39,974 nt of DNA from Acidobacteriota bacterium (GTDB taxonomy: Bacteria > Acidobacteriota > UBA6911 > RPQK01 > JAJDTT01), in contig JAJDTT010000169.1 in the NCBI GenBank assembly GCA_022827025.1, positions 1 to 39,974 of the forward strand, in the 5' to 3' direction. The position numbers and the translations under genes were made by a program. Below the pieces are notes generated by a model. It searched no databases. It had not been told where the DNA came from and worked only from the letters and a program-made list of their open reading frames with translations. Below are positions 1,707-32,660 of this stretch, piece after piece (the first letter of the stretch is position 1; every line of letters starts with the position of its first letter).

Positions 1707-3796
1707 ATGAACAGCTATCGAATCGGAGTGGACATCGGGGGAACGTTCACGGACCTGGTCATGATGAACGAGTCCACCGGAGAACTGCGGCTCGTGAAAA
1801 TGTCCAGCACACCCAGCGATCCCTCGGTGGGATTCCTGAACACGGTGGTACGCGCCTTGAGAGAATCCAAGGTGGCCGCCGCGGACGTCTCCTACAACGT
1901 CCATGGGACCACCGTGGCGACCAATACTCTCATTGAGGGGAAAGGCGCCCGGACCGCCCTGGTGGCCACCGAGGGGTTCCGGGACGTCCTGGAAATCGCC
2001 CGCCAGATCCGGCCCCGGCTCTACGACATCTTCTGCGAGAAACCGAAGCCCGTGATTCTGCGGAACCGGTGTTACGGAGTGCCGGAGCGCCTGGACTATG
2101 CCGGTCAGGTCCTCTCCCCGCTGGATGAGGAATCGGTCCGGGACGTGGCCGGCCGCATGAAGGAGGCCGCCGTCGAGTCGGTGGCGGTCTGCCTGCTGCA
2201 TTCGTACGTCAACCCGTCCCACGAGAAGCGGGTTCGCGCCGTCCTTCGAGAAGAATTGCCGGGCGTGTTCCTGTCCATCTCCTCCGACCTCTGCCCGGAG
2301 ATGAGGGAGTACTTTCGCGCCAGCACGACCGCCATCAACGCCGTGGTCATGCCCATCGTGACCCGCTACCTGGAGAACCTGGAGAACCGGTTGGCCCGTT
2401 TGGGTGTCGGCGTGGGACTGCACCTCATGACCTCGGCCGGCGGGGTCATGGCCTCGGACGTGGCCAAGCGGGAACCGGTGCACCTGATCGAATCGGGACC
2501 GGCGGCCGGGGTCATCGCGACGCGTTACCTGGGAGACTTGGTGGGGACCCGGGACGTCATCAGCTTCGACATGGGAGGCACCACCGCCAAGCTCGGCCTG
2601 GTGGAAGGGGGTAACGTCAAGATCGCGCCCCATTTCGAAGTCGGCAGCGCCGCCGTGGCGGAGAGCAAGGGAGCCGGATACCCGGTCAGGACGCCTGTCG
2701 TCGACCTGTGGAGATCGGCGCCGGCGGCGGGAGCATCGCCTGGATCGATCCCGGAGGCGCGTTGCGGGTCGGGCCGAGGAGCGGCGGCGCCGATCCGGGT
2801 CCGGCCTGTTACGGAAAAGGCCAGGAGGAACCGTGCATCACCGACGCCAACCTGGTGCTGGGTCGGCTCAACCCGGACTATTTCATCGGGGGGGAGCAGA
2901 CGCTCGATCCGGAGCTGGCGGAAGCGGCGGTCCGAAAACTGGCCGGCCGGTTGGGTCTGGGCGTGGTGGAGACGGCCAACGGGATCATCGAGATCGCCAA
3001 CGCCAACATGATCGGCGCCGTCCGCACCATCTCGGTCCAGAGGGGTTTCGACCCACGGGACTTCGTATTGGTCGCCTTCGGGGGAGCGGGACCCATGCAC
3101 GCCAACGGATTGGCCCGGGAGTTGGGGATTCCCAAGGTGCTCATTCCCATGAGCCCCGGGGTGACCTCCGCCCTGGGACTGCTGGTGAGCGACATCAAGC
3201 ACGATTACGTCCGCGCCTTTCATCAGCAGATGGCGTCGCTCGATCTGGAGCTTCTCAACCGGTCCTACTCCGAATTGGCCGAACGCGGCCGGGAAGTCCT
3301 TTGTTCCGAGGGCATTTCCGGGGAGGACATCACCTTTGCCCACTACCTGGACATGAGGTACGTGGGTCAGGGATACGAATTGAAGATCGAGATTCCGAAT
3401 CGAGACCTGACCGAGGGCGACAAGAGAACCGTGAACGCGGCCTTCTACAGGGAGCACGAGCGGGCCTACGGCTATGCCGACGACACGGAACCGACGGAGG
3501 CGGTCGCACTGAGGCTGACCGCCGTCGGGAAGATCAGGCAGCCGAGCTTGCGCCGGCTCGACACGGGTACGGGGGAGGCCGGCGATGCCGTCAAGAATGA
3601 GCGGCCCGTCCACTTTGCCGAGCGCGGTGGCGCGGTCCCGTGCCAGGTCTACGATCGCTATCGCCTGAAGTCGGGAGACCGCATCGTGGGGCCGGCCATC
3701 GTGGAGGAGGTGGATTCGACCGTGGTCCTCCATCCGGACTACCAGGCGGACGTCGACCTCCACGGCAACATTCTGATCCAGGAGTCTGCGCGGTAG
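1707..3796 (+). CDS. hyuA: Hydantoinase/oxoprolinase subunit A (HyuA), frameshifted
   Basis: HyuA-family proteins are ATP-dependent and, with HyuB, open cyclic amides such as N-methylhydantoin or 5-oxoproline. The N-terminal domain begins with the phosphate motif DIGGTFTD (residues 9-16), and the second ATPase motif DMGGTTAK is near residue 290. Reading breaks at about 2706-2710. The first frame gives VVDL then nonsense, while the frame shifted by one gives VEIGAGGGSIAWIDPGG and runs to 3796. One missing G (CTGGTGGAG read as CTGTGGAG) would repair it to about 696 residues, the usual HyuA length. It may be a sequencing error or a real lesion. The last four codons and the stop (ESAR, TAG) lie inside the inserted 158-bp element at 3782-3939, so the native C-terminus was replaced. 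hyuB follows. The substrate cannot be told from sequence. Confidence 0.88.
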
Positions 3797-3939
3797 AAAT
3801 GATCGTAGCGAGAAAGTGGAGAATCGAGGCCAGATTTTCACGATTTGGAGGTGCATAGTTGTTCTATTCGCCGAGAAATCGGGGAAATATGGACCGATTC
3901 TACGCTTTCGCAGTAGATTAATTTCTGCCGCGCAGGCTC
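3782..3939. mobile_element. 158-bp MITE-like palindromic element, copy 1
   Basis: This 158-bp element starts GAGTCTGCG and ends CGCAGGCTC. Its two halves are imperfect inverted repeats along nearly their whole length, so it could fold into one long hairpin. It is flanked by the 4-bp direct repeat CCAG (3778-3781 and 3940-3943), which fits a target-site duplication. The second copy at 12522-12679 has the same length and differs at three central bases (here 3847, 3863, 3876). It encodes no convincing protein. It sits between hyuA and hyuB and supplies the hyuA stop codon. The transposase that moves it is not in this window. Confidence 0.88.
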
Positions 3940-3954
3940 CCAGGACGGACAATC

Positions 3955-12469: not shown

Positions 12470-12521
12470 CTACCCAATAGTTTTCGTCAATCCTCACACG
12501 AGTTCGAGATTTAGGAACTAG

Positions 12522-12679
12522 GAGTCTGCGCGGTAGAAATGATCGTAGCGAGAAAGTGGAGAATCGAGGCCAGATTTTCACGATTTTGAGGTGCATAGTT
12601 GTGCTATTCGCCGAGGAATCGGGGAAATATGGACCGATTCTACGCTTTCGCAGTAGATTAATTTCTGCCGCGCAGGCTC
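12522..12679. mobile_element. 158-bp MITE-like palindromic element, copy 2
   Basis: This is the second copy of the element at 3782-3939, in the same orientation and of the same length, with 155 of 158 bases identical. It is flanked by the 4-bp direct repeat CTAG (12518-12521 and 12680-12683). Its right end lies inside the 3' end of the symporter gene: the last six residues (SLRGRN) and the TAA stop are encoded by the element. Confidence 0.9.
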
Positions 12680-14094
12680 CTAGGATTTCGCGTCTCCCAC
12701 CAGGTGCCGAGCGCCAGCAGCGAGACGGTGATGGGCACCCCGATCAGAATGGGATCGACGGTCCAGACGACCACGATGGTGCCCACCTCTTGGACGCTTC
12801 CCAGGATCTGGTAGAGGATGATCACGCTGGCTCCGGTCAGCATGGAGGTGAGGACGGTTCTGGGGGCCCGCCGGACTCGGGGAAACAGGACCATCGCCGC
12901 CACCACGGGCGCCACCGAAGCTCCCATGATCCGTCCGCCCAGCCAGAACAGTTCGATCATCAAGGGAAAGACGTAGTAGATGGCGGCGGCCAACGCTCCG
13001 ACCAGAATGACGTTCAGGCGGTAGAGCCAGAGCTGAGCCCTGGGACTGGCGTTGGGATTCAGGAACCGGTTGTAGATGTCGATGGTGAAGTTGGAGGCGA
13101 TGGTGTTGATGGTGGAGTCGAGGGTGGACATGCTGGCGGCCAGGATCCCCACGATGATGATGCTGCCCAGTTGCCCCCCGGCCACGCCGAAGGTCATTCT
13201 GAGGAACACGTCGTCGCCGGAGATGTCCGCGCCGTAGAGGGCCCGCCCCAGGACGCCGATCAGAGGCGGGACCATGTACCAGATCGTGGAGATGATCCCG
13301 CCGTAGAGAAATCCCTTGTGGGCGGCCGCCGTGCTGGAGGCCGCCAACCCCCGCTGGATCACGCTCTGGTAGCCGAAGGTGATGGAAATGCCGATGACGA
13401 CCCAGGCAATGACCTGGCTGGGACCGCCGGTGCCGAAGCTGCCGAGAAAGTCCGGGTCCTCGATGGACCGCAGGACGGAAAACCCTCCGGCGCCCAGAAA
13501 TCCGAACACCACGAGTGCTACGGATCCTATGGAGACGATGAAGAACTGGATCGCGTCGGTCACCAGGATGGCCCACATCCCGCCCAGGAAGACGTAGACC
13601 AGGGTCAGCGCCCCGACCAGCGCCAGGGACTGCAGGAGCGAAATCTGCAGGATGCTGGAGGTGACCACGGCCAGGGACCCCATGACTCCCGCGGTGGCGC
13701 CCAGGTCCCGGAGGATGATGAGGGAAAGGGAAACGAGGCGATGCCGGGGGCCGTAGAAACGCTCGAAGAGCTGGGGAACGGTGATGATCCGGGTGGCCCT
13801 GAGACGCGGGACGACGTAATAGGACATCCAGATGGTGGCGAGGACGAATGAACCGCCGGTCCAGTAGGCGCTCAGGCCGAAGTCCTTGGCCACCCCCGAG
13901 ATCCCGATCAGGGTGGTCCCGTTGATCCAGGTTGCGGCCACCGAGAAGGCGATCAACCAGGGTCCGGAGCTGCGGCCGGCGACGGCCATGTCCTCCATCC
14001 GGCCGACCCGCGTCCGGGCGGCCCAGATGCCGATCCCGAACATCAGGAGCAGGTAGGTGACGATCAGCCACCAGGAGGGCTGGAACTCTTCCAT
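12658..14094 (-). CDS. Sodium:solute symporter (SSS family)
   Basis: This 478-residue integral membrane protein of the SSS (SLC5-type) family has about 13 hydrophobic segments. It carries family features such as AGRSSGPWLIAFSVAATWIN near residue 40 (TM1/2 region) and MWAILVTDAIQFFIV in the middle. Members import sugars, amino acids, organic acids or vitamins with sodium; the substrate here is unknown. The C-terminus (ETRNP, then SLRGRN and TAA) was rewritten by insertion of the 158-bp element. Loss of the native last few residues would probably be tolerated. The gene lies 3 bases after a 60-residue membrane protein, a likely partner, and downstream of a DAO-family oxidase that may act on the imported compound. 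Confidence 0.92.
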   Translation of the reverse strand: MEEFQPSWWLIVTYLLLMFGIGIWAARTRVGRMEDMAVAGRSSGPWLIAFSVAATWINGTTLIGISGVAKDFGLSAYWTGGSFVLATIWMSYYVVPRLRATRIITVPQLFERFYGPRHRLVSLSLIILRDLGATAGVMGSLAVVTSSILQISLLQSLALVGALTLVYVFLGGMWAILVTDAIQFFIVSIGSVALVVFGFLGAGGFSVLRSIEDPDFLGSFGTGGPSQVIAWVVIGISITFGYQSVIQRGLAASSTAAAHKGFLYGGIISTIWYMVPPLIGVLGRALYGADISGDDVFLRMTFGVAGGQLGSIIIVGILAASMSTLDSTINTIASNFTIDIYNRFLNPNASPRAQLWLYRLNVILVGALAAAIYYVFPLMIELFWLGGRIMGASVAPVVAAMVLFPRVRRAPRTVLTSMLTGASVIILYQILGSVQEVGTIVVVWTVDPILIGVPITVSLLALGTWWETRNPRSLRGRN

Positions 14095-15525: not shown

Positions 15526-17406
15526 TCAGGGAACGACCGGAAGCACGACGTGCGACGGGTAGGCGTCGTCGTGATGAACCGTCTGGGTCGCCTTCCTCAA
15601 CTCCGCGTCTTCACCGAACCTGTGCCCGGTGTTGGGATTGCGGTCGTACTTCGGGAAATTGCTGCTGGAGATCTCCAGTTGAATCCGGTGCCCGCGCTTG
15701 AAGACGTGGCTGACCGACCACAGATCGATGGTGTACTCGTTGACCTTGCCCGGTTCCAGCAACGCCTGTTTCTTGAACGAGTCCCGGTAGCGGGCGCGGA
15801 TGATCCCCTCCGCCAGCAACTGGGCGTAGCCGTTGGGGTGGACGTCCACCAGCTTGGCGGTGAAGTCGGTGTCGGTGGCGCTGGACGCGGCATGGAGCAT
15901 GGTCAGGACCCGTCCCGTCACCTCGACCTCTTTTTCCAGGACCTCGCCAGTGTAGACCAGCACGTCGTCCCGCCGCTGGATGGCCCTCTGGTCCCGGGGC
16001 CCGCCGGTGGAGGGGTACATGCTCACGTTGCCGCCGTAGGTAGGAACCGGATCGTCGGGATCGTAGACGAAGGTATCGGCCGGTTGCCGGGACGGCGCCT
16101 CGGTGCTCAGGGTGCCGTCGCCGAACCGGCTGTTGGCCTGGCCGCCGCTGTGCAGGTAATACTTCGTGTTCCGGGCGCGGCTGAGGGGCCATTCGTGCTC
16201 AGTGCGCCACTTGTTGGCCCCCATCACGAAGATGTCGACCCGCGGTTCGTCCATGATCCCGTTGTCGATGCCCTTGAGCCAGTAGTCGTACCAGCGAAGC
16301 TCGATGGGGCGGAAGTCCACGTCGGCCTCGGGACCGTAGTCGAGGTCCCCCACCTCCCGGGGCCCCACCCCGTGCCTCCAGGGACCGACGAGCAGGCGAT
16401 GCCGGTCCCGGATCGCTTCGGGACCGTAACGCACCATGCCCAGGTAACCGTTGATGGTGGCCTGGGAAACCTGGTCGTACCAGCCGGTGATGTTGAGGGT
16501 CGGCACCTGGACCTTGTGGTACTGTCCCGCGCTCATCTCGCCCGCCCGGGGACGGTCGCCCACGCTGAAACGCCAGTAGTGGTCGTTGTCCGGGTGATCC
16601 ACCAGGTCCTGCCAAAGGATGTCGGTCTGCCCGAACATGGCCTGGTCCATGGTCCGAATGGGAAGGTGGCGGTACAACTTGTCCCAGTCCAGGAAATCGT
16701 TCCGCAGGCCATCGATGTTGTTGGCCGTCAGGTTTCCCAGGAGCGCCAGGAGGTTGAGGCTGTTGGAGAGCTGGAACGCTCCGTTGGGGTAGACGTTGTC
16801 CCAGTGGTCGTCGGGAGTGACGTAGGGGATCAGCGCCGTGAGATACGGGTTCGCCTCGGTGGCGCCCATCCACTGCACGAATCCCAGGTACGACCCGCCG
16901 GCCATGCCGATTTTTCCCGTGGACCACGGCTGCTCTCCCAACCAGGTCTGGCAGTCGTAGACGTCCTGGCCGTCGAACTTCCCTTCCCGCCACTTCGGAT
17001 CCCAGTAGAGATAGGATTCCCCTTCGGAATCGTACCGTCCCCTCACGTCGATGCAGGCGAAGACGTATCCGCGGGGCACGAAGTACTGGGCGCGGCCGAT
17101 GATGTCTCCCTGGAAGAACTCCGATTTCCGCGTGTTGTCATAGGGCATGTAGATGAAGATGACCGGGAACTTGCCTTCCGCCCTGGGCCGCCAGATGTTG
17201 GCCGACAGCCGGACGCCGTCCCGCATGCGCACCTTGACGTCGTGCTCGAAGAGGATTTCGTATCGGGGTTGCGAGAGCTTGTCCACCCAGGAGGAGTCGT
17301 TGCGCACGAACCAAGTATCCGACGCCAGACCGGCCGCCGCCAGGAAAGTCAGGATCAGGAGGAAAAGGAAAACGGGCGCGACGGAAATCCTGGGACTGCA
17401 CGACAT
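15526..17406 (-). CDS. CocE/NonD-family hydrolase 1 (X-Pro dipeptidyl-peptidase-like)
   Basis: This 626-residue exported serine hydrolase belongs to the CocE/NonD family (cocaine esterase, alpha-amino acid ester hydrolase, glutaryl-7-ACA acylase type). The ATG at 17404-17406 is best placed: GGAGGGAG lies 9 bases upstream, whereas an ATG at 17413-17415 directly abuts it. The signal peptide is MSCSPRISVAPVFLFLLILT. After MRDGVRLSANIWRP comes the nucleophile GGSYLG with Ser172, then an Asp in ITGWYDQ and a His in VGPWRHG. A C-terminal jelly-roll (FKRGHRIQLEISSSNFPKYD) follows. It lacks the ~110-residue C-terminal extension of the next two paralogues. It is the third of three CocE genes in a row. 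Confidence 0.92.
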   Translation of the reverse strand: MSCSPRISVAPVFLFLLILTFLAAAGLASDTWFVRNDSSWVDKLSQPRYEILFEHDVKVRMRDGVRLSANIWRPRAEGKFPVIFIYMPYDNTRKSEFFQGDIIGRAQYFVPRGYVFACIDVRGRYDSEGESYLYWDPKWREGKFDGQDVYDCQTWLGEQPWSTGKIGMAGGSYLGFVQWMGATEANPYLTALIPYVTPDDHWDNVYPNGAFQLSNSLNLLALLGNLTANNIDGLRNDFLDWDKLYRHLPIRTMDQAMFGQTDILWQDLVDHPDNDHYWRFSVGDRPRAGEMSAGQYHKVQVPTLNITGWYDQVSQATINGYLGMVRYGPEAIRDRHRLLVGPWRHGVGPREVGDLDYGPEADVDFRPIELRWYDYWLKGIDNGIMDEPRVDIFVMGANKWRTEHEWPLSRARNTKYYLHSGGQANSRFGDGTLSTEAPSRQPADTFVYDPDDPVPTYGGNVSMYPSTGGPRDQRAIQRRDDVLVYTGEVLEKEVEVTGRVLTMLHAASSATDTDFTAKLVDVHPNGYAQLLAEGIIRARYRDSFKKQALLEPGKVNEYTIDLWSVSHVFKRGHRIQLEISSSNFPKYDRNPNTGHRFGEDAELRKATQTVHHDDAYPSHVVLPVVP

Positions 17407-17451
17407 GGAATTCATCTCCCTCCGGCTGTGGAACACGGGCCCGGTGCCTCG

Positions 17452-19554
17452 CTAATTCAGTCTTCGTGGAATGGTGACCGACCAACTCCGGTTGAAATGT
17501 CTTCTTCCGTTGACCGTGATCTCGATCTCCACCAGGTGGCGGAACGCCGCCTTGTTGCTGGAAGTCAGCTCGTTGGCCTCGATCTTGACTTCCGATTCCG
17601 GCCGGGTGATGGATAGCGTGGCCTCGGCCTTGAGCGCGGCGTTGGCCGGGTTCTTCTCGGACACGGTGAAACTGGAGAGCAGCTTCATGGCTTGCTCGCC
17701 GCCGCCTCGCTTGCCCTTTCGCTCCTTGCCCAGGCGAACCGTGGTGGATTCGGCGACCAGGTCCTGGGTGATGGAGTATTGCAGTGGCCGCTCCTGATCC
17801 AGCGCCACCTTCGGGTCGGCGTTGGGCAGGGTCACGAACTCGGGCTCCGGCAGCTTGGGATTCTGTTCCGGGATCACCGGCAGGACGATGTGGGACGGGT
17901 AGCGGCCGTTGCGGTACACGGTGTTCACGGCCGGCAGGGCCGTGGGCCAGGCGTTCTGGATGTCGGCGTTGGCAATGGCCACCCGGACCCGGTGCCCGGG
18001 GGCGAACACGTAGGTCATCACCTTCACCTCCACCGGCACCTCGTGGACCTCTCCCGGCCGAAGCGGTTCGGGCTCGAAGTGGGACTTCCGGTGCGCGGCG
18101 TTCATACCGCCGTAGCGCACCAGTTTGGACGTTCCGTCCGGCGCCACGTCGATGAGCTTCACGCGGAAATAGGCGACCTCGGCCGTGGAGGAGATGTGCA
18201 GCATGGCGCGCGGCGTGCCCGAGACCTCCAGCGGTTCCTCCAACGGGTCCGTGGTGTAGGTCAGGGAGTAGGCCTCGTCGGCCCGCTGGTCGATGGGGTT
18301 GCCCCAGGGGAGAATCCCGCCCCCCCAGTGGATCCCCGAGGTGACCCCCACGGTCGGCTTGTACTCCAGACGGTCTCCTTCCTCATCCGGTCCCCCGGGA
18401 GGCGTGCGGCCCAGCTTCCCGTCCGGGTGAAAGTACATCCTGGTGGGCTGCTCCCGCGCTATGGGCCATTCCAGTTCCGAGCGCCAGAAGCCGGGCTCCT
18501 CGACGGGCATGACGGGAGAGGGAGGATCGTATTCCCGGACGAAGACCGTCACCGGAGGCTCCTCCAGGACCCCGTTGTCGATCCCCTTGAGCCAATAGTC
18601 GAACCACTTCAACATGATGGGCCGGCCGTCGATCCGGGGTCCGGGCACCGTCTTCTCGTTCTCGGCCCAGATGTGCCTCCAGGGGCCCACCAGGGCTTTC
18701 TTGTGCTTGACTTCCAGCTTGGAAAAGGCTCGCAGCAGGGCCGTCGGATAGACGTCGGCCCAGCCGGCGATGACGAAGACCGGGCACTTGACCCGGCTGT
18801 AGTCCGCCGACAGGGAGCGGTCCTGCCAGTACGGCCCCTCCTGTTGATGAGAGATGTAGCCGATTCCCCAGGGTTGGTTGTGGTCCAGCCGCGTCTGCCA
18901 GATGTCGCTCCACTTCTCGCCGACGATTTCGGGATCGGGGGGCGCGAAGTTGTAGGCCGTCATGAGGGGCGAATAGGTGTCGAACATGTAGGGGCGAAGT
19001 GAGCCGCCGGGATAGGTCCACTCGGTGTAGACGCTGTCGTTGGCCGAGCGCACGATGATGGTCTTGAGGCTGGGCGGATTCTGGACCGCCACCTGCCACT
19101 GCACCACCCCGCCGTAGGAAATCCCGGTCATGCCCACGTTGCCGTTGGACCACGGTTGGCGCGCGATCCACTCCACCATCTCGTAGCCGTCCCGCCTCTC
19201 GTCATCGGAGTAGATGTCCTTGCTCCACCCGCCGGAGTTTCCGGTGCCGCGGACGTCGTACTGCACGATGGCGTAGCCCCGCTCCGCCAGATAAGGCACG
19301 AACATGGGCCTTTCATCCCGATAATCCGCCAGGGGTTCCCGTACGCCGCGGTAGGGGTGGTACATCATGACGGCGGGAAACCGCCCCTCCGCGTCCGGCA
19401 TGGTGATCTTGGTCGCCAGCTCCACCCCATCCCGCATGGCGACGCGGGGGTAGATGATCTTGACCTTCCCCTCGTAGACCGGCTTCGAGAGCCCATGGGA
19501 CTCTGCCGGCAGGGACGCGGGCAGGATCAGGAGCAGGAAAAACAGGATCCACAT
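17452..19554 (-). CDS. CocE/NonD-family hydrolase 2
   Basis: This 700-residue exported hydrolase is paralogous to its two neighbours. The ATG at 19552-19554 has AAGGAG about 8 bases upstream and opens a signal peptide (MWILFFLLLILPASLPAES). Domain order is an alpha/beta-hydrolase with YDVRGTGNSGG near residue 99, nucleophile Ser146 in GISYGG, Asp in IAGWADVYP and His in VGPWRHIW. The jelly-roll (PGHRVRVAIANADIQNAWP) follows. A last ~110-residue beta-rich extension ends VEITVNGRRHFNRSWSVTIP. The closely similar ending of hydrolase 3 indicates a tandem duplication. It likely cleaves esters or amides of small molecules or peptides in the periplasm or outside. Confidence 0.93.
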   Translation of the reverse strand: MWILFFLLLILPASLPAESHGLSKPVYEGKVKIIYPRVAMRDGVELATKITMPDAEGRFPAVMMYHPYRGVREPLADYRDERPMFVPYLAERGYAIVQYDVRGTGNSGGWSKDIYSDDERRDGYEMVEWIARQPWSNGNVGMTGISYGGVVQWQVAVQNPPSLKTIIVRSANDSVYTEWTYPGGSLRPYMFDTYSPLMTAYNFAPPDPEIVGEKWSDIWQTRLDHNQPWGIGYISHQQEGPYWQDRSLSADYSRVKCPVFVIAGWADVYPTALLRAFSKLEVKHKKALVGPWRHIWAENEKTVPGPRIDGRPIMLKWFDYWLKGIDNGVLEEPPVTVFVREYDPPSPVMPVEEPGFWRSELEWPIAREQPTRMYFHPDGKLGRTPPGGPDEEGDRLEYKPTVGVTSGIHWGGGILPWGNPIDQRADEAYSLTYTTDPLEEPLEVSGTPRAMLHISSTAEVAYFRVKLIDVAPDGTSKLVRYGGMNAAHRKSHFEPEPLRPGEVHEVPVEVKVMTYVFAPGHRVRVAIANADIQNAWPTALPAVNTVYRNGRYPSHIVLPVIPEQNPKLPEPEFVTLPNADPKVALDQERPLQYSITQDLVAESTTVRLGKERKGKRGGGEQAMKLLSSFTVSEKNPANAALKAEATLSITRPESEVKIEANELTSSNKAAFRHLVEIEITVNGRRHFNRSWSVTIPRRLN

Positions 19555-19614
19555 GATGGCTCTCCTTCTGTCGTCCGAATCGTTCAGCATCGGTTGTTCC
19601 GGCAGGACCGGGTT

Positions 19615-21699
19615 TCAGTTCAGTTTGCGGGGAACGCTGACCCTCCAACTCTTGTGGAAGTGACGCTTCCCATTCACCGTCACCTCCACCTGGCTCACGA
19701 AATGGAACGAATCCAGATCGCTGGTCAGACTTTCGTTCGCTTCCACGGTCATTCCTGATCCTGCGGGCGGGACTTCGTAAACGTAACGAGCCTTGAGAAC
19801 GGTCTCCGCAGGATTCCGTCTCGAAACCGTGTAGGTGGAATGTGCGAGTCCGGGCGCCGGACCGATCTCGGAGACCCTCTCCAGAGTGGCCGTTACCGTT
19901 TCGTCGACCAGGTCGTGTTTGATCTCGTGCCGGGTGCTGCTGCTGATGTCCGCCATGGTCGCCGCCGGTTTCGGGGAAGGCCTGAATTTTGGTCGGCCCA
20001 TGGAGGGAGCCTGAGCCGGCGTCACCGGCAAGACGACATGAGATGGATGGCCACCGTCCCGGTGGATGGCGTTGACGGCAGGCTTGGCGGTGGGCCAGGC
20101 ATTCTGAAAATCCGCGCTGGCAACGCTGATCCGAATGCGATGGCCTTTCTCGAACAGGTAGGAGACGTACTTCAGATCGATTTCCAGTTTGTAGACCTTT
20201 CCGGGCTCCATCGGTTCCGGATTGGAGTGGGAATTGCGGTGCGTGGCGAGCAACCCGCCGTCCGTCAGCCACTTGGAGGTGCCATCGGGCGCCACGTCCG
20301 TGAGCTTCACGTGGAAGTAGGCCGTGTCGGCCGTAGAGGCGACATGGAGCATGGCCTTCGGATTCCCCGTGACCTCCAGATCCCGCTCCAGCGGCGCCGT
20401 CGTGTAGGTCATGGAAGTGGCGTCGTCGAGCCGCTGATCGACCGGCATGGCCCAGGGCATGATTCCCCCGCCCCAGTAGATGCCCGCGCTGATCCCGACC
20501 GCCGGGTTGTAAGCGTATTCGTCGGGCGCGCTCTCGCCGGCGGGGCTCTTGCGACTCAGCCCTCCGCCAGGTTGCAAGTAATACGGAGTGTCGTGATTCC
20601 GGGCCGGCGGCCACTCGTTTTCATGTCTCCAGAATCCGGCGTCCTCCAAATACATGTGAGCCGCCGGCTTCTTGTAGCGGCGTATGAAGAGGGTCACGGC
20701 GGGCTCCTCCATGACGCCGGTGTCTTCCCCCTTGAGCCAGTGGTCGAACCACTTGAGCATCTCGTGCCTGAAATCGATCCGGGGACCGGGCAGGGCTTCT
20801 TCCGGCCAGTAGTGTCCCCAGGGACCCAACAGGATCTTCTTGGGGACGTCGAGCTTGGAGAAGGCCCGCAGGATGGGGGTGGGATACGGGTCGGCCCAAC
20901 CGCACCAGAACATGACGGGAACCTGGATCCGGCTGTAGTCCGGCTGCAGGGAGCGATCGCGCCAGTAGGGTCCCTGGAGCAGGTTCGAAATGAAGCCGAT
21001 ACCCCAGGGAACGTTCTTCTCCAGCCGCTCCTCCCAGAGTTCGGACCAGCGCGGTCCGACGATATCCGCGTCCGGCGGCGACATGTTGAAGGCGGTCATC
21101 ATGGGGGCGAAGCTGTCGAACATGTAAGGACGGATGCTGCCGCCGGGATTCGTCCAGTCCAGGTAGACGTCGTCGTTGGAAGACCCGATCACGAGGGTCT
21201 TCAGCGCGGGAGGATTCTGCACCCCCACCTGCCATTGCACGACGCCGCCATAAGACATGCCCCACATTCCCACGTTGCCGCTACACCAGGGTTGGGCCGC
21301 GATCCATTCCACCATGTCGCAGGCGTCCCGGCGCTCCTCGTCGGAATAGACGTCCTGGGTCGTCCCGCCCGAATTTCCGGTGCCGCGAACGTCGAAGTAG
21401 ATGACGGCGTAACCACGCCGGGCGAAGTAGGGAGGCCCGTCCCATCTGTGGTTGTACGTCGCGTCCGAGCTCGTCTCCTTGACGTTCCTCAGCCAGCGAT
21501 AGGGGTTGTACGACATGATGGCCGGGAACCGTCCCTCCGCGTCGGGACGAACGACGACGGCCGCCAACTCCACCCCGTCCCGCATCCGGACCCGGACCCG
21601 GCGGTCCAATCGCACGTTGTATGGAGGGGGGACTTTCCTGTCCCCCCGACTCACAGGATTCAGCGGTGGCAACAGTGTTTCAGCCCCGGCCCGATCCAC
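19615..21699 (-). CDS. CocE/NonD-family hydrolase 3, N-terminus altered by repeat
   Basis: This is a 694-residue CocE/NonD hydrolase with the same layout as hydrolase 2: YFDVRGTGNSGG, nucleophile Ser149 in GMSYGG, Asp in CGWADPYP, His in LGPWGHYW, jelly-roll (KGHRIRISVASADFQNAWP), and a C-terminal extension ending VTVNGKRHFHKSW. Unlike its paralogues it has no signal peptide. The only extended start is a GTG at 21697-21699. Its first ~27 codons come from a duplicated segment plus a hairpin repeat (RGDRKVPPPY corresponds to the hairpin at 21626-21647). Conserved sequence begins at NVRLDRRVRVRMRDG. The original start and signal peptide were probably lost, so the product may be cytoplasmic or the gene unexpressed. 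Confidence 0.85.
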   Translation of the reverse strand: MDRAGAETLLPPLNPVSRGDRKVPPPYNVRLDRRVRVRMRDGVELAAVVVRPDAEGRFPAIMSYNPYRWLRNVKETSSDATYNHRWDGPPYFARRGYAVIYFDVRGTGNSGGTTQDVYSDEERRDACDMVEWIAAQPWCSGNVGMWGMSYGGVVQWQVGVQNPPALKTLVIGSSNDDVYLDWTNPGGSIRPYMFDSFAPMMTAFNMSPPDADIVGPRWSELWEERLEKNVPWGIGFISNLLQGPYWRDRSLQPDYSRIQVPVMFWCGWADPYPTPILRAFSKLDVPKKILLGPWGHYWPEEALPGPRIDFRHEMLKWFDHWLKGEDTGVMEEPAVTLFIRRYKKPAAHMYLEDAGFWRHENEWPPARNHDTPYYLQPGGGLSRKSPAGESAPDEYAYNPAVGISAGIYWGGGIMPWAMPVDQRLDDATSMTYTTAPLERDLEVTGNPKAMLHVASTADTAYFHVKLTDVAPDGTSKWLTDGGLLATHRNSHSNPEPMEPGKVYKLEIDLKYVSYLFEKGHRIRISVASADFQNAWPTAKPAVNAIHRDGGHPSHVVLPVTPAQAPSMGRPKFRPSPKPAATMADISSSTRHEIKHDLVDETVTATLERVSEIGPAPGLAHSTYTVSRRNPAETVLKARYVYEVPPAGSGMTVEANESLTSDLDSFHFVSQVEVTVNGKRHFHKSWRVSVPRKLN
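21626..21647. repeat. Hairpin repeat, TTTCCT loop (a)
   Basis: A perfect 8-bp stem, GGGGGGAC/GTCCCCCC, surrounds the loop TTTCCT. It is read in frame as part of the N-terminus of CocE hydrolase 3. The same hairpin recurs at 21777-21798 and, with a shorter stem, at 21876-21893. Confidence 0.8.
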
Positions 21700-21708
21700 T
21701 TGACGATA

Positions 21709-21771
21709 TCACACTTCCACCAGGACCCGCATTCCCCGGGTGCTGGTCCGTCCGCCAGGCTCGATTTCCGG
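21709..21771 (-). pseudogene. Remnant of a SUMF1-fold gene C-terminus
   Basis: Read on the minus strand this encodes PEIEPGGRTSTRGMRVLVEV and a stop, almost identical to the C-terminus of the intact SUMF1-fold gene at 21957-22991 (which ends RGMRVLVEE). Similarity begins abruptly next to a hairpin repeat (21777-21798). It extends past the stop into non-coding DNA, giving a direct repeat of about 150 bp (21622-21771 versus 21872-22019). It is a leftover of a duplication or recombination, not a gene. Confidence 0.82.
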
Positions 21772-21776
21772 ATGGA

Positions 21777-21798
21777 GGGGGGACTTTCCTGTCCCCCC
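21777..21798. repeat. Hairpin repeat, TTTCCT loop (b)
   Basis: GGGGGGAC and GTCCCCCC pair around the loop TTTCCT, identical to the hairpin at 21626-21647. It marks the boundary where similarity to the SUMF1-fold gene stops. Confidence 0.8.
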
Positions 21799-21842
21799 TT
21801 CTTCTTTCGCGCGTACCATTCTTGACGTTACCTGATCAGCAA

Positions 21843-21868
21843 GAGTGGGGGTAGGAAAACCCCCACTC
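21843..21868. repeat. Hairpin repeat, AGGAAA loop (c)
   Basis: A perfect 10-bp stem, GAGTGGGGGT/ACCCCCACTC, surrounds the loop AGGAAA, which is the reverse complement of the TTTCCT loop of its neighbours. The stem sequence is quite different from theirs but fully paired. Confidence 0.78.
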
Positions 21869-21875
21869 CTTTGGA

Positions 21876-21893
21876 GGGGACTTTCCTGTCCCC
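21876..21893. repeat. Hairpin repeat, TTTCCT loop (d)
   Basis: GGGGAC and GTCCCC pair around TTTCCT, just downstream of the SUMF1-fold gene's stop (read on the minus strand). It may also act as a transcription barrier. Confidence 0.75.
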
Positions 21894-21956
21894 CCGAATT
21901 CCAGGATTCAACGGTGGCATCAGTGTCTTCGCCCCGGCCCGATCCACTTGACGAGA

Positions 21957-22991
21957 TCACTCTTCCACCAGGACCCGCATTCCCCGGGTACTGGTCCGCC
22001 CGCCGGGCTCGATTTCCGGGCGAAACGACGGCCGGTAGGCGTCGGGGCTGTTGAGCCAACTCCCTCCCCGCATGCTCCGGAATCCCTCGGCTTCGCTTCC
22101 CCGCGGATCGGTTCGATCCGGGTCTTCACCCGCCCAGTCCAGGGTGTATTCCCAGACGTTGCCGATGGCGTCGAACAGGCCTCTCGGGTTCGGATAGAAC
22201 CTACCCACGGGCGCCGTACCCTCATATCCGTCGTCCCTCCCCTCCGGGATGAGACTGCGCATTTCGGTCCCCGTCAGGAACAGGTCGGCGTCGGAATCGT
22301 CTGCCATGGCGTCATCCGCCACGTTGGCCCAGTAGCCGCTGGGAAGCCGGGGATCCCGCACGTAATCGGCCGGCCTCTTGCCCCAGTAGTAGCGGGTGAC
22401 GGTGAGGGCCCGCTGGCCGTATTCCAACTCGCCCTCGGTGGGAAGCCGTACCGTTCGTCCCGACTTGCCGCTCAGCCAGCGGCAGAACTCCATGGCGTCG
22501 AACCAACTGATGCAGGTGACCGGGTGGTCCGAACCTTGGGGAAAACCGGGATTTTGCCAGGAGGCTTCGGACTTGGGACCCCAGCTCCCGCCCCCCATGG
22601 TGTAGCAGCCTTTTCCCAGTTCCCGCCAGGAACGGCGTCCCGTCTCGGCATCCGTCCGGTAGCCGCTGTTCTCCACGAAGCGCCGGAACTGCCCGACGGT
22701 CACCTCGTATTTGCCAAGCTGGAAGGCTTTGGTGATGGTCACCTGGCGGGCGCGCAGGTCATGGCGAGCGAACAGGCCGATCAAGGCCCGCGACCAGTCG
22801 GTTTCCCCCATCATGAACTCGCCGGGCGGGATCCTAATCAGTTCCAGTTGAACTCCAGATCCGAGATCCAGCGTGACCTCCTCATGCCCGGCAGCCGAAC
22901 CCGCCGGCACCGGGTCGAGTCCGCTGCCCGTAAACAGGACGCCGAAAGTGACCAGCGCCAAAGCGAGTCGGCCGGTTGCCTGGTTGGACAT
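21957..22991 (-). CDS. SUMF1/FGE-fold protein without the catalytic cysteines
   Basis: This is a 344-residue exported protein. The ATG at 22989-22991 has AAGGGA just upstream, and the signal peptide is in MSNQATGRLALALVTFGVLF. The body is a SUMF1 (formylglycine-generating enzyme) fold: IPPGEFMMGE near residue 59, then KYEVTVGQFRRFVENSGYRT, PVTCISWFDAMEFCRWLSG, VRLPTEGELEYGQRA, GNVWEYTLDW and RGGSWLN. In true FGEs the region after RGGSW carries the paired active-site cysteines. Here it reads NSPDAYRPSFRP with none, so formylglycine formation is unlikely. No sulfatase is in the window. It may be a binding or structural member of the family. It sits between the TonB receptor and the CocE genes. 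Confidence 0.88.
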   Translation of the reverse strand: MSNQATGRLALALVTFGVLFTGSGLDPVPAGSAAGHEEVTLDLGSGVQLELIRIPPGEFMMGETDWSRALIGLFARHDLRARQVTITKAFQLGKYEVTVGQFRRFVENSGYRTDAETGRRSWRELGKGCYTMGGGSWGPKSEASWQNPGFPQGSDHPVTCISWFDAMEFCRWLSGKSGRTVRLPTEGELEYGQRALTVTRYYWGKRPADYVRDPRLPSGYWANVADDAMADDSDADLFLTGTEMRSLIPEGRDDGYEGTAPVGRFYPNPRGLFDAIGNVWEYTLDWAGEDPDRTDPRGSEAEGFRSMRGGSWLNSPDAYRPSFRPEIEPGGRTSTRGMRVLVEE

Positions 22992-23088
22992 CTTTCCCTT
23001 CAGGTTCGTGGCTCCAAGACGCAAGGGGAGTCTGGCAGACGCGACGCGGTTGCTGCCGCCTCCCCCCGGTGTTCCGTTCGGTTCCCGG

Positions 23089-30114: not shown

Positions 30115-31386
30115 ATGAAAAAAACACCGGTCCTGCTCCTGGCCGCCTGTTTTTGCGGCGTCTCCCTGTCCGGCAACTGGCCCGACTACCGGGGCCCCCG
30201 CCAGGATGGGGTGTCCGAGGTCACGAGCCTGCCCCTGCGCTGGAGCGAGACGCTCAACGTTCGCTGGAAGACGCCGATTCACGGCCGTGCCTGGTCCTCC
30301 CCCGTCATCTGGGGGAAACAGGTCTGGCTCACCACCGCCACGGAGGACGGAAAAGAACTCTCTGTTCTGTGCATCGATCGAGACAGCGGGAAGATCCTCT
30401 TGGACCGCAAGCTCTTCGACGTCGCCATACCGCGTCCCCTGAGCAACGCCGTCAACACCTATGCCAGTCCCTCGCCCACCATCGAGGAGGGCCGGGTCTA
30501 TGTCCATTTCGGGAGTTACGGGACCGCCTGTCTGGACACGAAGACCTTCGAGGTCCTCTGGGAACGCCGGGACCTCCCCTGCGACCACTGGCGCGGTCCG
30601 GCCTCTTCGCCCGTGCTCTGGGAGGACGTCCTCTTCCTGCACATGGATGGCGCCGACGTCCAGTACGTGGCGGCACTGGACAAGACCACGGGCTTCAACC
30701 GGTGGGTGACCTTCCGCTCGGTCGACTACGGAGACCTGGAGGAGAACGGCCGGCCGCGCATGTCCGGTGACTTCCGCAAGGCCTACAACACGCCGCTGGT
30801 GATCGAGTTCCAGGGAGAGCCGCAACTCATCAGCCCCAGCGCCAAGGGAGCCTACGGCTACGATCCCCGCACCGGACGCGAGATCTGGCAGATTCGCCAC
30901 GGAGGTCATTCCTCGGCGCCCAGGACTCTCTACTCCGACGGCCAGGTCGGGATCGGAACCGGATACATCGGGAGCGCGGCCCAGCTCTGGGGGGTCCGTC
31001 TCGGCGGCCGGGGCGACGTGACCGGGACCCACATCGCCTGGAAGTACGCCCGCGGCGCTCCGAAGCACTCCTCCCCGGTTCTGGCCGGAGGACGGGTCTA
31101 CATGGTGAGCAACGACGGGATCGCCACTTGCCTCGACTTCAAGAGCGGACAGGAGATCTGGAAGATCCGAATCGGCGGTCTCCACTCCGCCTCGGTCCTC
31201 TACGCCGGCGGCCGGATTCACTACTTCGACGAGGACGGCCGAACCACCATCCTCCAACCGGGGGAGACACCGGAAATCCTGGCCAGGAACCAACTGGACG
31301 ACGGTTTCATGGCCTCGCCGGCGGTGGCCGACGGAGCCCTCTTCCTGCGCACGAAGACGCACCTCTACCGGATCCAGGGAAGATGA
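30115..31386 (+). CDS. PQQ-like beta-propeller lipoprotein 1
   Basis: This 423-residue exported protein has a signal with a lipobox-like LLLAAC (MKKTPVLLLAACFCG), so it is probably membrane-anchored. The mature part begins NWPDYRGPRQDGVSE, the hallmark opening of PQQ-binding-like beta-propeller (PQQ_2/BamB-like) proteins. Repeated blades such as CIDRDSGKILLDRKLFD, GAYGYDPRTGREIWQIRHG and CLDFKSGQEIWKIRIGG follow. Members of this group in Acidobacteriota and Planctomycetota usually have no proven enzyme activity. The stop overlaps the start of paralogue 2 (ATGA at 31383-31386). AGGAGG stands 10 bases before the ATG. Confidence 0.88.
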   Translation: MKKTPVLLLAACFCGVSLSGNWPDYRGPRQDGVSEVTSLPLRWSETLNVRWKTPIHGRAWSSPVIWGKQVWLTTATEDGKELSVLCIDRDSGKILLDRKLFDVAIPRPLSNAVNTYASPSPTIEEGRVYVHFGSYGTACLDTKTFEVLWERRDLPCDHWRGPASSPVLWEDVLFLHMDGADVQYVAALDKTTGFNRWVTFRSVDYGDLEENGRPRMSGDFRKAYNTPLVIEFQGEPQLISPSAKGAYGYDPRTGREIWQIRHGGHSSAPRTLYSDGQVGIGTGYIGSAAQLWGVRLGGRGDVTGTHIAWKYARGAPKHSSPVLAGGRVYMVSNDGIATCLDFKSGQEIWKIRIGGLHSASVLYAGGRIHYFDEDGRTTILQPGETPEILARNQLDDGFMASPAVADGALFLRTKTHLYRIQGR

Positions 31387-32660
31387 GCAAAGAGAAGAGA
31401 ATTCCGATCCTGCTCCTGGCCGCATGCCTTTCGAGCGGCGCCATGTTCGGAAACTGGCCCGACTATCGAGGGCCGGGCCGGGACGGCAGATCCGAGGCCG
31501 CGAACCTCCCCCTGCGCTGGGGCGAGACGCTCAACGTTCGATGGAAGACGCCGGTTCACGGCCGCGGCTGGTCGTCTCCGGTGATCTGGGGAGAACAGAT
31601 CTGACTCACCACCGCCACGGAGGACGGCAAGGAACTCTCCGTTCTGTGCATCGATCGCGACAGCGGGAAGATCCTCTTGGACCGCAAGCTCTTCGACGTC
31701 CCCAAACCTCGTCCCCTGAGCAACCCCGACAATTCCTACGCCAGTCCCTCGCCGACCATCGAGGAGGGCCGGGCCTATATCCATTTCGGGAGCTACGGGA
31801 CCGCCTGTCTGGACACCCGGACCTTCGAGATTCTCTGGCAACGCCGGGACCTCCCCTGCGACCACTGGCGCGGCCCGGCCTCTTCTCCCTATCTCTGGGA
31901 GGACCTCCTCTTCCTGAATATGGACGGCGCCGACGTCCAGTACGTGGTGGCTCTGGACAAGGCGACCGGCGCCAACCGGTGGGTGACGTTTCGGTCGGTG
32001 GATTATGGAGACCTGGAGGAGGACGGCCGCCCGCGCGCGTTCGGAGACTTCCGCAAGGCCTACAACACGCCGCTGGTGGTCGATTTCCAGGGAGAGTTGC
32101 AACTCATCAGTCCCGGCGCCAAAGGGGCCTACGGATACGAGCCCAGAACCGGCCGCGAACTCTGGCAGATTCGCCATACCGGTCACTCCTCGGCCCCAAG
32201 GACCCTGTACGCTGACGGCCAGGTCGGCATCGCCACGGGGCACATCGGGGGGACGGCGCAACTTTGGGCGGTCCGTCTCGGCGGCCGGGGCGACGTGACC
32301 GGATCCCATGTGGCCTGGAAACACGCCCGGGGCGCTCCCAAGCGTTCCTCTCCGGTGCTGGTCGAGGGGCGGGTCTACATGGTGAGCAACGACGGGATCG
32401 CCACCTGCGTCGACTTCAAGAGCGGAAAGGAGATCTGGAAGGAACGAATCGGCGGTCTCCACTCCTCCTCGGTGCTCTACGCCAGCGGCCGGATCCACTT
32501 CTTCGACGAAGACGGCGTCGCAACCATCGTCCAACCGGCCGACACTCTGGAAATCCTGGCCCGAAACAAGCTGGAAAACGGTTTCATGGCCTCGCCGGCG
32601 GTCTCCGGCGGAGCGCTCTTCCTGCGCACCACCACACACCTCTACCGCATTCAGGAATAG
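31383..32660 (+). CDS. PQQ-like beta-propeller lipoprotein 2, with in-frame nonsense codon
   Basis: This is a tandem paralogue of the previous gene, strongly similar throughout, with a lipobox-like signal (MSKEKRIPILLLAACLSSG). Codon 74 is TGA (31602-31604) where paralogue 1 has TGG (Trp in KQVWLTTATEDG). The same frame then continues without another stop to 32660 with LTTATEDGKELSVLCIDRD. A single G-to-A change explains it. It may be a sequencing error, strain variation or an early pseudogene. Recoding of UGA as Trp is unlikely because other genes here end in TGA. If restored, the product would be 425 residues. Confidence 0.75.

What the first reader, a model, noticed from the sequence alone, without database searches (positions are those of the whole stretch)
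21600..21711. CocE hydrolase 3 has its N-terminus rewritten by a repeat and has lost its signal peptide
The two neighbouring paralogues have clear signal peptides. In this gene the conserved domain (from NVRLDRRVRV) is preceded directly by a hairpin repeat read as RGDRKVPPPY and then by non-coding DNA that duplicates the region downstream of the SUMF1-fold gene. The only long start is a GTG inside that duplicated stretch. An exported enzyme may have become cytoplasmic, or the gene is no longer properly expressed.
Basis: partly seen in the sequence, partly recalled or inferred. Interest (0 to 1): 0.5.

Follow-up and report, generated by a model that had tools for sequence, protein, structure and literature searches.

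The report
Repeat invasion replaced a gene's start
A hairpin repeat of a known kind has replaced the leader and first few codons of a bacterial esterase gene, but close relatives show that this enzyme carries no export signal to lose, so the case is mostly ordinary.

Summary
The hairpin at 21623-21647 belongs to a palindrome family with 134 copies (up to 2 mismatches) in this genome, of REP type, with RAYT-like transposase ORFs; among 21 genomes searched only the four of this genus have it. Two more direct copies and an inverted partner lie between it and the SUMF1-fold gene. The 144-bp duplication (91%) is real and includes the last ~20 codons of that gene; four other hairpin pairs examined also carry duplicated flanks.

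In the three same-genus genomes returned, the orthologue lies behind the same SUMF1 gene and starts MSR[SP]EY..VQLDRRVRV at the first start codon of its frame, with a Shine-Dalgarno-like motif and no signal peptide. Lost were the native leader, ATG and first five codons; homology resumes at the Tyr codon one base after the hairpin. The rest of the ORF is intact (dN/dS about 0.14). The predicted fold starts at V29, itself an in-frame GTG (21615), so the repeat residues need not be translated. Which start is used, and how well, is unresolved. Conserved synteny argues against a chimeric junction; reads were not available.

The parts
19615..21699 (-). CocE/NonD family hydrolase 3, longest ORF (GTG start, 694 aa)
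   Evidence: TIGR00976 333.1 bits, PF02129 and PF08530; ORF
21613..21615 (-). in-frame GTG (V29), the most likely minimal start (inference): just after the hairpin and at the first residue of the first predicted strand
   Evidence: candidate starts; strand 29-38; residues 1-22 pLDDT below 50
21623..21647 (+). REP-type hairpin copy 1, one base from the Tyr27 codon of CocE3; read as RGDRKVPPP on the - strand
21628..21771 (-). duplicate of 21876-22019: part of the hairpin, former SUMF1 downstream DNA and the last ~20 codons of the SUMF1-fold gene
   Evidence: 13 differences in 144
21774..21798 (+). REP-type hairpin copy 2
21842..21869 (-). inverted partner hairpin (type B); 21774-21869 forms a dimer with matches elsewhere in the genome
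   Evidence: (C297, C127, C272, C228, C305; 73-88% identity)
21874..21895 (+). REP-type hairpin copy 3 (22-base core, one mismatch)
21957..23024 (-). SUMF1-fold (FGE-sulfatase) gene, source of the duplicated tail, intact
   Evidence: PF03781 168.1 bits; upstream of the orthologue in G001-G003
17452..19590 (-). CocE hydrolase 2, paralogue with an N-terminal hydrophobic signal-like stretch
15526..17436 (-). CocE hydrolase 1, paralogue with an N-terminal hydrophobic signal-like stretch

Best explanation
A cluster of REP-type palindromes, of a family that this genome holds in over 100 copies along with RAYT-like transposase ORFs, settled between the SUMF1-fold gene and the gene of a CocE-type esterase without a signal peptide. 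The cluster was tandemly amplified together with flanking DNA (the SUMF1 tail), and a hairpin now stands one base from the esterase's Tyr6 codon. In the process the native leader (174 bp in G002, 165 bp in G003), with its Shine-Dalgarno-like motif, ATG and first five codons, was lost. Shown: repeat family, duplication, conserved synteny, lost leader and codons, intact ORF, no signal peptide in the orthologues. Inferred: that the family moves by the transposase, that amplification used recombination between hairpins, and that translation now starts at GTG 21615 or at an upstream in-frame start, so that a near-normal cytoplasmic enzyme is still made.
For: Orthologues in 3 of 3 same-genus genomes returned start MSR[SP]EY[DE]VQLDRRVRV behind the same SUMF1 gene, at the first start codon of the frame, without a signal-like stretch. 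The G003 leader query (301 nt) matches the window only at its two ends (query 1-85, its duplicate 16-78, and 259-297); its middle has no match in the genome. Pattern GGGGACNTTCCNGTCCCC: 113 matches here, 30, 33 and 27 in G001, G002, G003, 0 in the 17 others of 21 genomes; reversed control 0, 0, 1 and 1. A Y1-transposase ORF on contig C110 has hairpins of this family on both sides. 5 of 11 same-orientation hairpin pairs within 450 bp have duplicated flanks (local score 50 or more, a line drawn after seeing the scores; control maximum 22 in 191), one of them in the window. dN/dS 0.139 and 0.136 to G002 and G003. S149 and H296 invariant in the 11-sequence alignment. First predicted strand is residues 29-38.
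Against: No candidate start in the window has a clear Shine-Dalgarno: anti-SD energy -4.0 (GTG 21699) and -0.1 (GTG 21615) against -6.1, -9.5 and -8.5 in the orthologues; but the test is weak, since random 20-mers from the region have median -3.5 and 5% quantile -9.9. The gene may be poorly translated. The intact ORF may only mean that the junction is recent: the neutral expectation of 3.5 nonsense changes (probability of none 0.029) assumes that the junction is as old as the duplication. The transposase ORFs score 66.1 and 73.3 bits, below the NF047646 cut-off of 80, and the C110 copy has K for N in the PNHVH motif. The structure model is of modest quality (mean pLDDT 65.5).
Confidence: 0.85

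Rival explanations
1. The gene lost its signal peptide through the repeat, turning an exported enzyme into a cytoplasmic one.
For: The adjacent paralogues CocE1 and CocE2 have hydrophobic N-termini, and the repeat does replace the start of the gene.
Against: 3 of 3 same-genus orthologues have no signal-like N-terminus. A further paralogue group (G000 C218, G003 C97, G001 C36) also lacks one, so both kinds coexist. Solved cocaine esterase aligns from its residue 9 to residue 32 here, so its N-terminus is about as short.
Confidence: 0.03
2. The gene is decaying: without its native leader it is no longer usefully translated, and the intact ORF reflects a recent junction.
For: Native Shine-Dalgarno-like motif and ATG are gone; a hairpin sits just before GTG 21615; no strong Shine-Dalgarno at the upstream candidate starts. 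In G001 the gene is frame-shifted near its start although its leader is intact, so it may be dispensable or that sequence faulty.
Against: ORF intact over 668 codons shared with G002 and G003, dN/dS about 0.14. The duplicate copies have diverged by 9% while dS to G002 is 0.373, so the duplication is not very recent.
Confidence: 0.25
3. Assembly artefact: the hairpins caused a false join or collapse at 21620-21900.
For: The assembly has 318 contigs, and at least 18 of the listed hairpin copies lie within 300 bp of a contig end.
Against: SUMF1 and CocE3 are adjacent in 3 of 3 congeners; the duplicate copies differ at 13 of 144 sites; the middle of the native leader has no match elsewhere in the assembly.
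Confidence: 0.06

Closest known systems
REP sequences / BIMEs (REPINs) with RAYT (TnpA_REP) transposases
   Same: Short imperfect palindromes in over 100 copies, mostly outside genes as far as tested, often with an inverted partner, some clusters amplified with flanking DNA, a Y1 transposase ORF with the hairpins on both sides (passages of PMC3733652 and PMC6006769).
   Different: The foot of the hairpin is GGAG (69 of 77 contexts), not the GTAG or GTGG of the 66 families on which PMC6006769 built its search rules (passage). The transposase ORFs score below the NF047646 cut-off.
Rickettsia palindromic elements (RPE)
   Same: A palindrome that is open in the frame of a gene and could add residues to a protein (intragenic RPE-4 and RPE-6 are mentioned in PMC3733652, passage).
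   Different: Here the element is at the extreme 5' end and may lie outside the translated part; of 77 contexts examined (75 with both flanks) one gave a weak sign of a hairpin inside a coding frame.
Cocaine esterase CocE and the CocE/NonD family
   Same: Same family by TIGR00976 and by sequence to solved cocaine esterases (best E 5.7e-54); short N-terminus in the orthologues.
   Different: The match to cocaine esterase ends at residue 561 of 694, so there is an extra C-terminal stretch; substrate not tested.

Membership tests
REP/RAYT system (canonical GTAG-tagged REPs) | short palindrome in high copy number, mainly outside genes | tested here: met
   134 copies with up to 2 mismatches; a codon model of limited power finds 1 of 77 contexts possibly inside a coding frame
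REP/RAYT system (canonical GTAG-tagged REPs) | GTAG or GTGG tetranucleotide at the 5' foot of the hairpin | tested here: not met
   GGAG in 69 of 77 contexts, neither GTAG nor GTGG in any
REP/RAYT system (canonical GTAG-tagged REPs) | inverted dimers (BIME/REPIN) and clusters | tested here: met
   inverted type-B partner within 150 nt downstream in 19 of 77 contexts and upstream in 7 of 77
REP/RAYT system (canonical GTAG-tagged REPs) | Y1 (HUH) REP-associated transposase gene flanked by the same repeats | tested here: inconclusive
   PF01797 above cut-off in 2 ORFs of the genome, hairpins on both sides of the C110 ORF, but NF047646 66.1 and 73.3 bits, below the cut-off of 80
REP/RAYT system (canonical GTAG-tagged REPs) | mobilisation of the repeats by the transposase | not testable with these tools
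   needs a cleavage or transposition assay
CocE/NonD hydrolase | family model score and PepX_C domain | tested here: met
   TIGR00976 333.1 bits against cut-off 66.3; PF08530 160.3 bits against 22.5
CocE/NonD hydrolase | catalytic Ser and His conserved | tested here: met
   S149 (GMSYGG) and H296 are invariant columns of the 11-sequence alignment; that these are the catalytic residues is recalled
Exported CocE paralogues with a signal peptide | N-terminal hydrophobic signal stretch | tested here: not met
   absent in the window gene and in 3 of 3 same-genus orthologues by hydropathy; no signal-peptide predictor was run

The most novel reading that the evidence does not exclude
The hairpin is not just a scar: translation starts upstream (GTG 21699) and the repeat-encoded peptide RGDRKVPPP is really part of the enzyme, or the hairpin just before GTG 21615 now sets the translation rate of this gene. 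Transposase-linked palindromes would then be making new N-termini or leaders that selection keeps.
Probability: 0.1. Interest if true: 0.35.

Novelty: new member of a known kind. Interest (0 to 1): 0.15.

Why it matters
It is a clean example, with same-genus orthologues for comparison, of how a REP-type palindrome cluster can remove a gene's own ribosome-binding site and start while leaving the rest of the ORF intact. It also warns against inferring a lost signal peptide from neighbouring paralogues, and against annotating repeat DNA as an N-terminus. The repeat family, seen in only one genus of the 21 genomes searched and three to four times as frequent here as in the three congeners by one pattern, may be of some use to students of RAYT/REP evolution.

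Tried and rejected
Signal-peptide loss: rejected on the orthologues. Coding palindromes as a general habit of this family: a codon log-odds model on the flanks of 77 hairpin contexts (75 with both flanks long enough) found one weak case (L118, in which the open frame runs through a hairpin dimer and looks like chance). The model was checked only on its own training genes (134 of 154 windows in the right frame) and many flanks scored too low to judge, so it could miss cases. Known RNA family at the site: none at the gathering threshold. Promoter-like sites: none; terminator-like sites: 3 against 0.6 expected by shuffling, which the palindromes themselves would give. Shine-Dalgarno energies: reported, but the random control shows low power. 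Literature: four searches; PMC3733652, PMC6006769 and PMC12306157 were seen as passages only, the other papers as listings. No passage seen names this repeat family; that does not show that it is unpublished.

Rows dropped: G001 was left out of the dN/dS count because its copy is frame-shifted near the start. The leader search took its query from G003 and covered G000, G001, G002 and G004; it also gave one 20-nt match on G000 C168 inside the coding part of the query. Hairpin contexts come from 60 loci and the window: 77 distinct contexts with up to 3 mismatches, against 134 copies counted with up to 2, so the sample is partial and leans to the copies listed first.

Full report
What was claimed.

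The observation. The hairpin GGAGGGGGGACTTTCCTGTCCCCCC stands at 21623-21647 and 21774-21798; a third copy of its core, with one mismatch, stands at 21874-21895, and an inverted partner (type B, GGAGTGGGGGTTTTCCTACCCCCACTCT) at 21842-21869. The core occurs 134 times with up to 2 mismatches in the 5,326,528-base assembly, and 0 times read backwards. The stretch 21628-21771 matches 21876-22019 at 131 of 144 positions. The copy takes in the last ~20 codons of the SUMF1-fold gene with its stop codon, so it is more than downstream non-coding DNA. Upstream of CocE3 the frame is closed by TGA at 21711; GTG 21699 is the first start, and TTG 21672, GTG 21654, GTG 21615, TTG 21609, ATG 21585 and further ones follow in frame.

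Orthologues. A search of 60 genomes (the window's own and 59 relatives) found matches in 47. The three same-genus genomes hold clear orthologues: G002 and G003 at 91% identity, G001 at 79%. In each the same SUMF1-fold gene lies directly upstream, and the CocE gene begins ATG with MSR[SP]EY[DE]VQLDRRVRVPMRDGVELA, preceded by GAGGG, GGAGGA or AAGGAG at Shine-Dalgarno distance. In 3 of 3 this ATG is the first ATG, GTG or TTG of its open frame, so there is no room for an upstream signal peptide under those start codons, and the N-terminus itself has no signal-like stretch. The window gene therefore did not lose one. Hydropathy was used; no signal-peptide predictor was at hand. Two of the relatives carry names in the public collection, by matching contig lengths: G002 is MAG JAPOYZ01 (labelled Candidatus Aminicenantes) and G001 MAG CATOST01 (labelled Acidobacteriota).

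What was lost. With the G003 leader (301 nt) as query, the window matches at query 1-85 (the end of the SUMF1 gene, with a second match at its duplicate, 16-78) and again at 259-297, where CocE3 resumes at its Tyr codon (21621-21619), one base after the hairpin; the middle of the leader has no match elsewhere in the genome at E 0.01. The hairpin cluster has thus replaced the leader, the Shine-Dalgarno-like motif, the ATG and five codons.

The repeat family. The pattern GGGGACNTTCCNGTCCCC has 113 matches in this genome, 30, 33 and 27 in G001, G002 and G003, and 0 in each of the 17 other genomes of 21 searched; the reversed control gives 0, 0, 1 and 1 in the four. In 77 distinct contexts the foot of the hairpin is GGAG in 69; an inverted type-B partner lies within 150 nt downstream in 19 and upstream in 7. 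The genome has two ORFs with the Y1 transposase domain above the cut-off. The one on contig C110 has hairpins of both types on its two sides. The two ORFs match the REP-associated tyrosine transposase model at 66.1 and 73.3 bits, short of its cut-off of 80. This resembles the REPtron arrangement described in PMC6006769 (passages), but the GTAG or GTGG foot of the families described there is not met, so I call the family REP-type rather than a member of the GTAG superfamily.

The duplication. Of 11 pairs of same-orientation hairpins within 450 bp in the loci examined, 5 have duplicated flanking DNA (local score 50 or more, a line drawn after seeing the scores; control maximum 22 in 191 random pairs), one of them in the window; the remaining six score at or below the control maximum or were too short to score. 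[quoted passage not shown] The two window copies lie 248 bp apart; the simplest reading (inference) is a tandem duplication of 21772-22019 followed by loss of 97 bp between two hairpins in one copy.

Is the gene still working? The ORF is open over 668 codons shared with G002 and G003. dN/dS is 0.139 to G002 and 0.136 to G003, against 0.145 between G002 and G003; dS to G002 is 0.373, while the two duplicate copies differ by 9%. If the junction is as old as the duplication, 3.5 nonsense changes would be expected without selection (probability of none 0.029); the junction could be younger. S149 and H296 are kept. In the AlphaFold2 model (mean pLDDT 65.5, so modest) residues 1-22 are below 50 and the first strand is 29-38. 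Residue 29 is the in-frame GTG at 21615, so a protein that begins there would keep the whole predicted fold and contain no repeat residue. PMC3733652 notes that most REPs in N-terminal coding regions may be extragenic, because of misannotation (passage). Against full function: neither GTG 21699 nor GTG 21615 has a clear Shine-Dalgarno, although the control shows that this test is weak; and the G001 orthologue is frame-shifted near its start.

Assembly. At least 18 of the listed hairpin copies lie within 300 bp of a contig end, so breaks or false joins at hairpins are a real concern in this genome. Here the gene order is conserved in 3 of 3 congeners, the copies differ at 13 sites, and no orphan leader was found, so a chimera is unlikely. 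Read coverage was not available.

Verdict. A known kind of repeat has invaded and replaced the start region of one gene. The claimed change of cell compartment is not supported. Interest is low; the open point is which start is used now.

Noticed in passing
window 1707-3796 (+), break near 2690-2710: A gene that looks like a hydantoinase/oxoprolinase (name recalled, no family search run) is split over two frames: ORF 1707-3011 leaves the family reading after PVRTPVVDL and ORF 2708-3796 continues it; a frameshift or sequencing error.
   Followed up: partly
window 31602-31604 (+): In the second of two tandem paralogues (PQQ-like propellers by eye, no family search run) an in-frame TGA stands where the first (30115-31386) has Trp; the frame continues beyond it.
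   Followed up: partly
window 3775-3945 and 12515-12685 (+): A second, unrelated dispersed repeat: 171 bp, about 96% identical, same orientation.
   Followed up: partly
L109 (G000 C297), L081 (C126), L122 (C79): Other hairpin clusters in this genome whose flanking DNA is duplicated with the hairpin.
   Followed up: partly
L012 / L062 (G001 C26): The G001 orthologue of CocE3 is frame-shifted near its start although its leader and ATG are intact.
   Followed up: no
L053 (G000 C218), L054 (G003 C97), L059 (G001 C36): Another CocE paralogue group without a signal-like N-terminus, so both kinds of paralogue coexist in this genus.
   Followed up: partly
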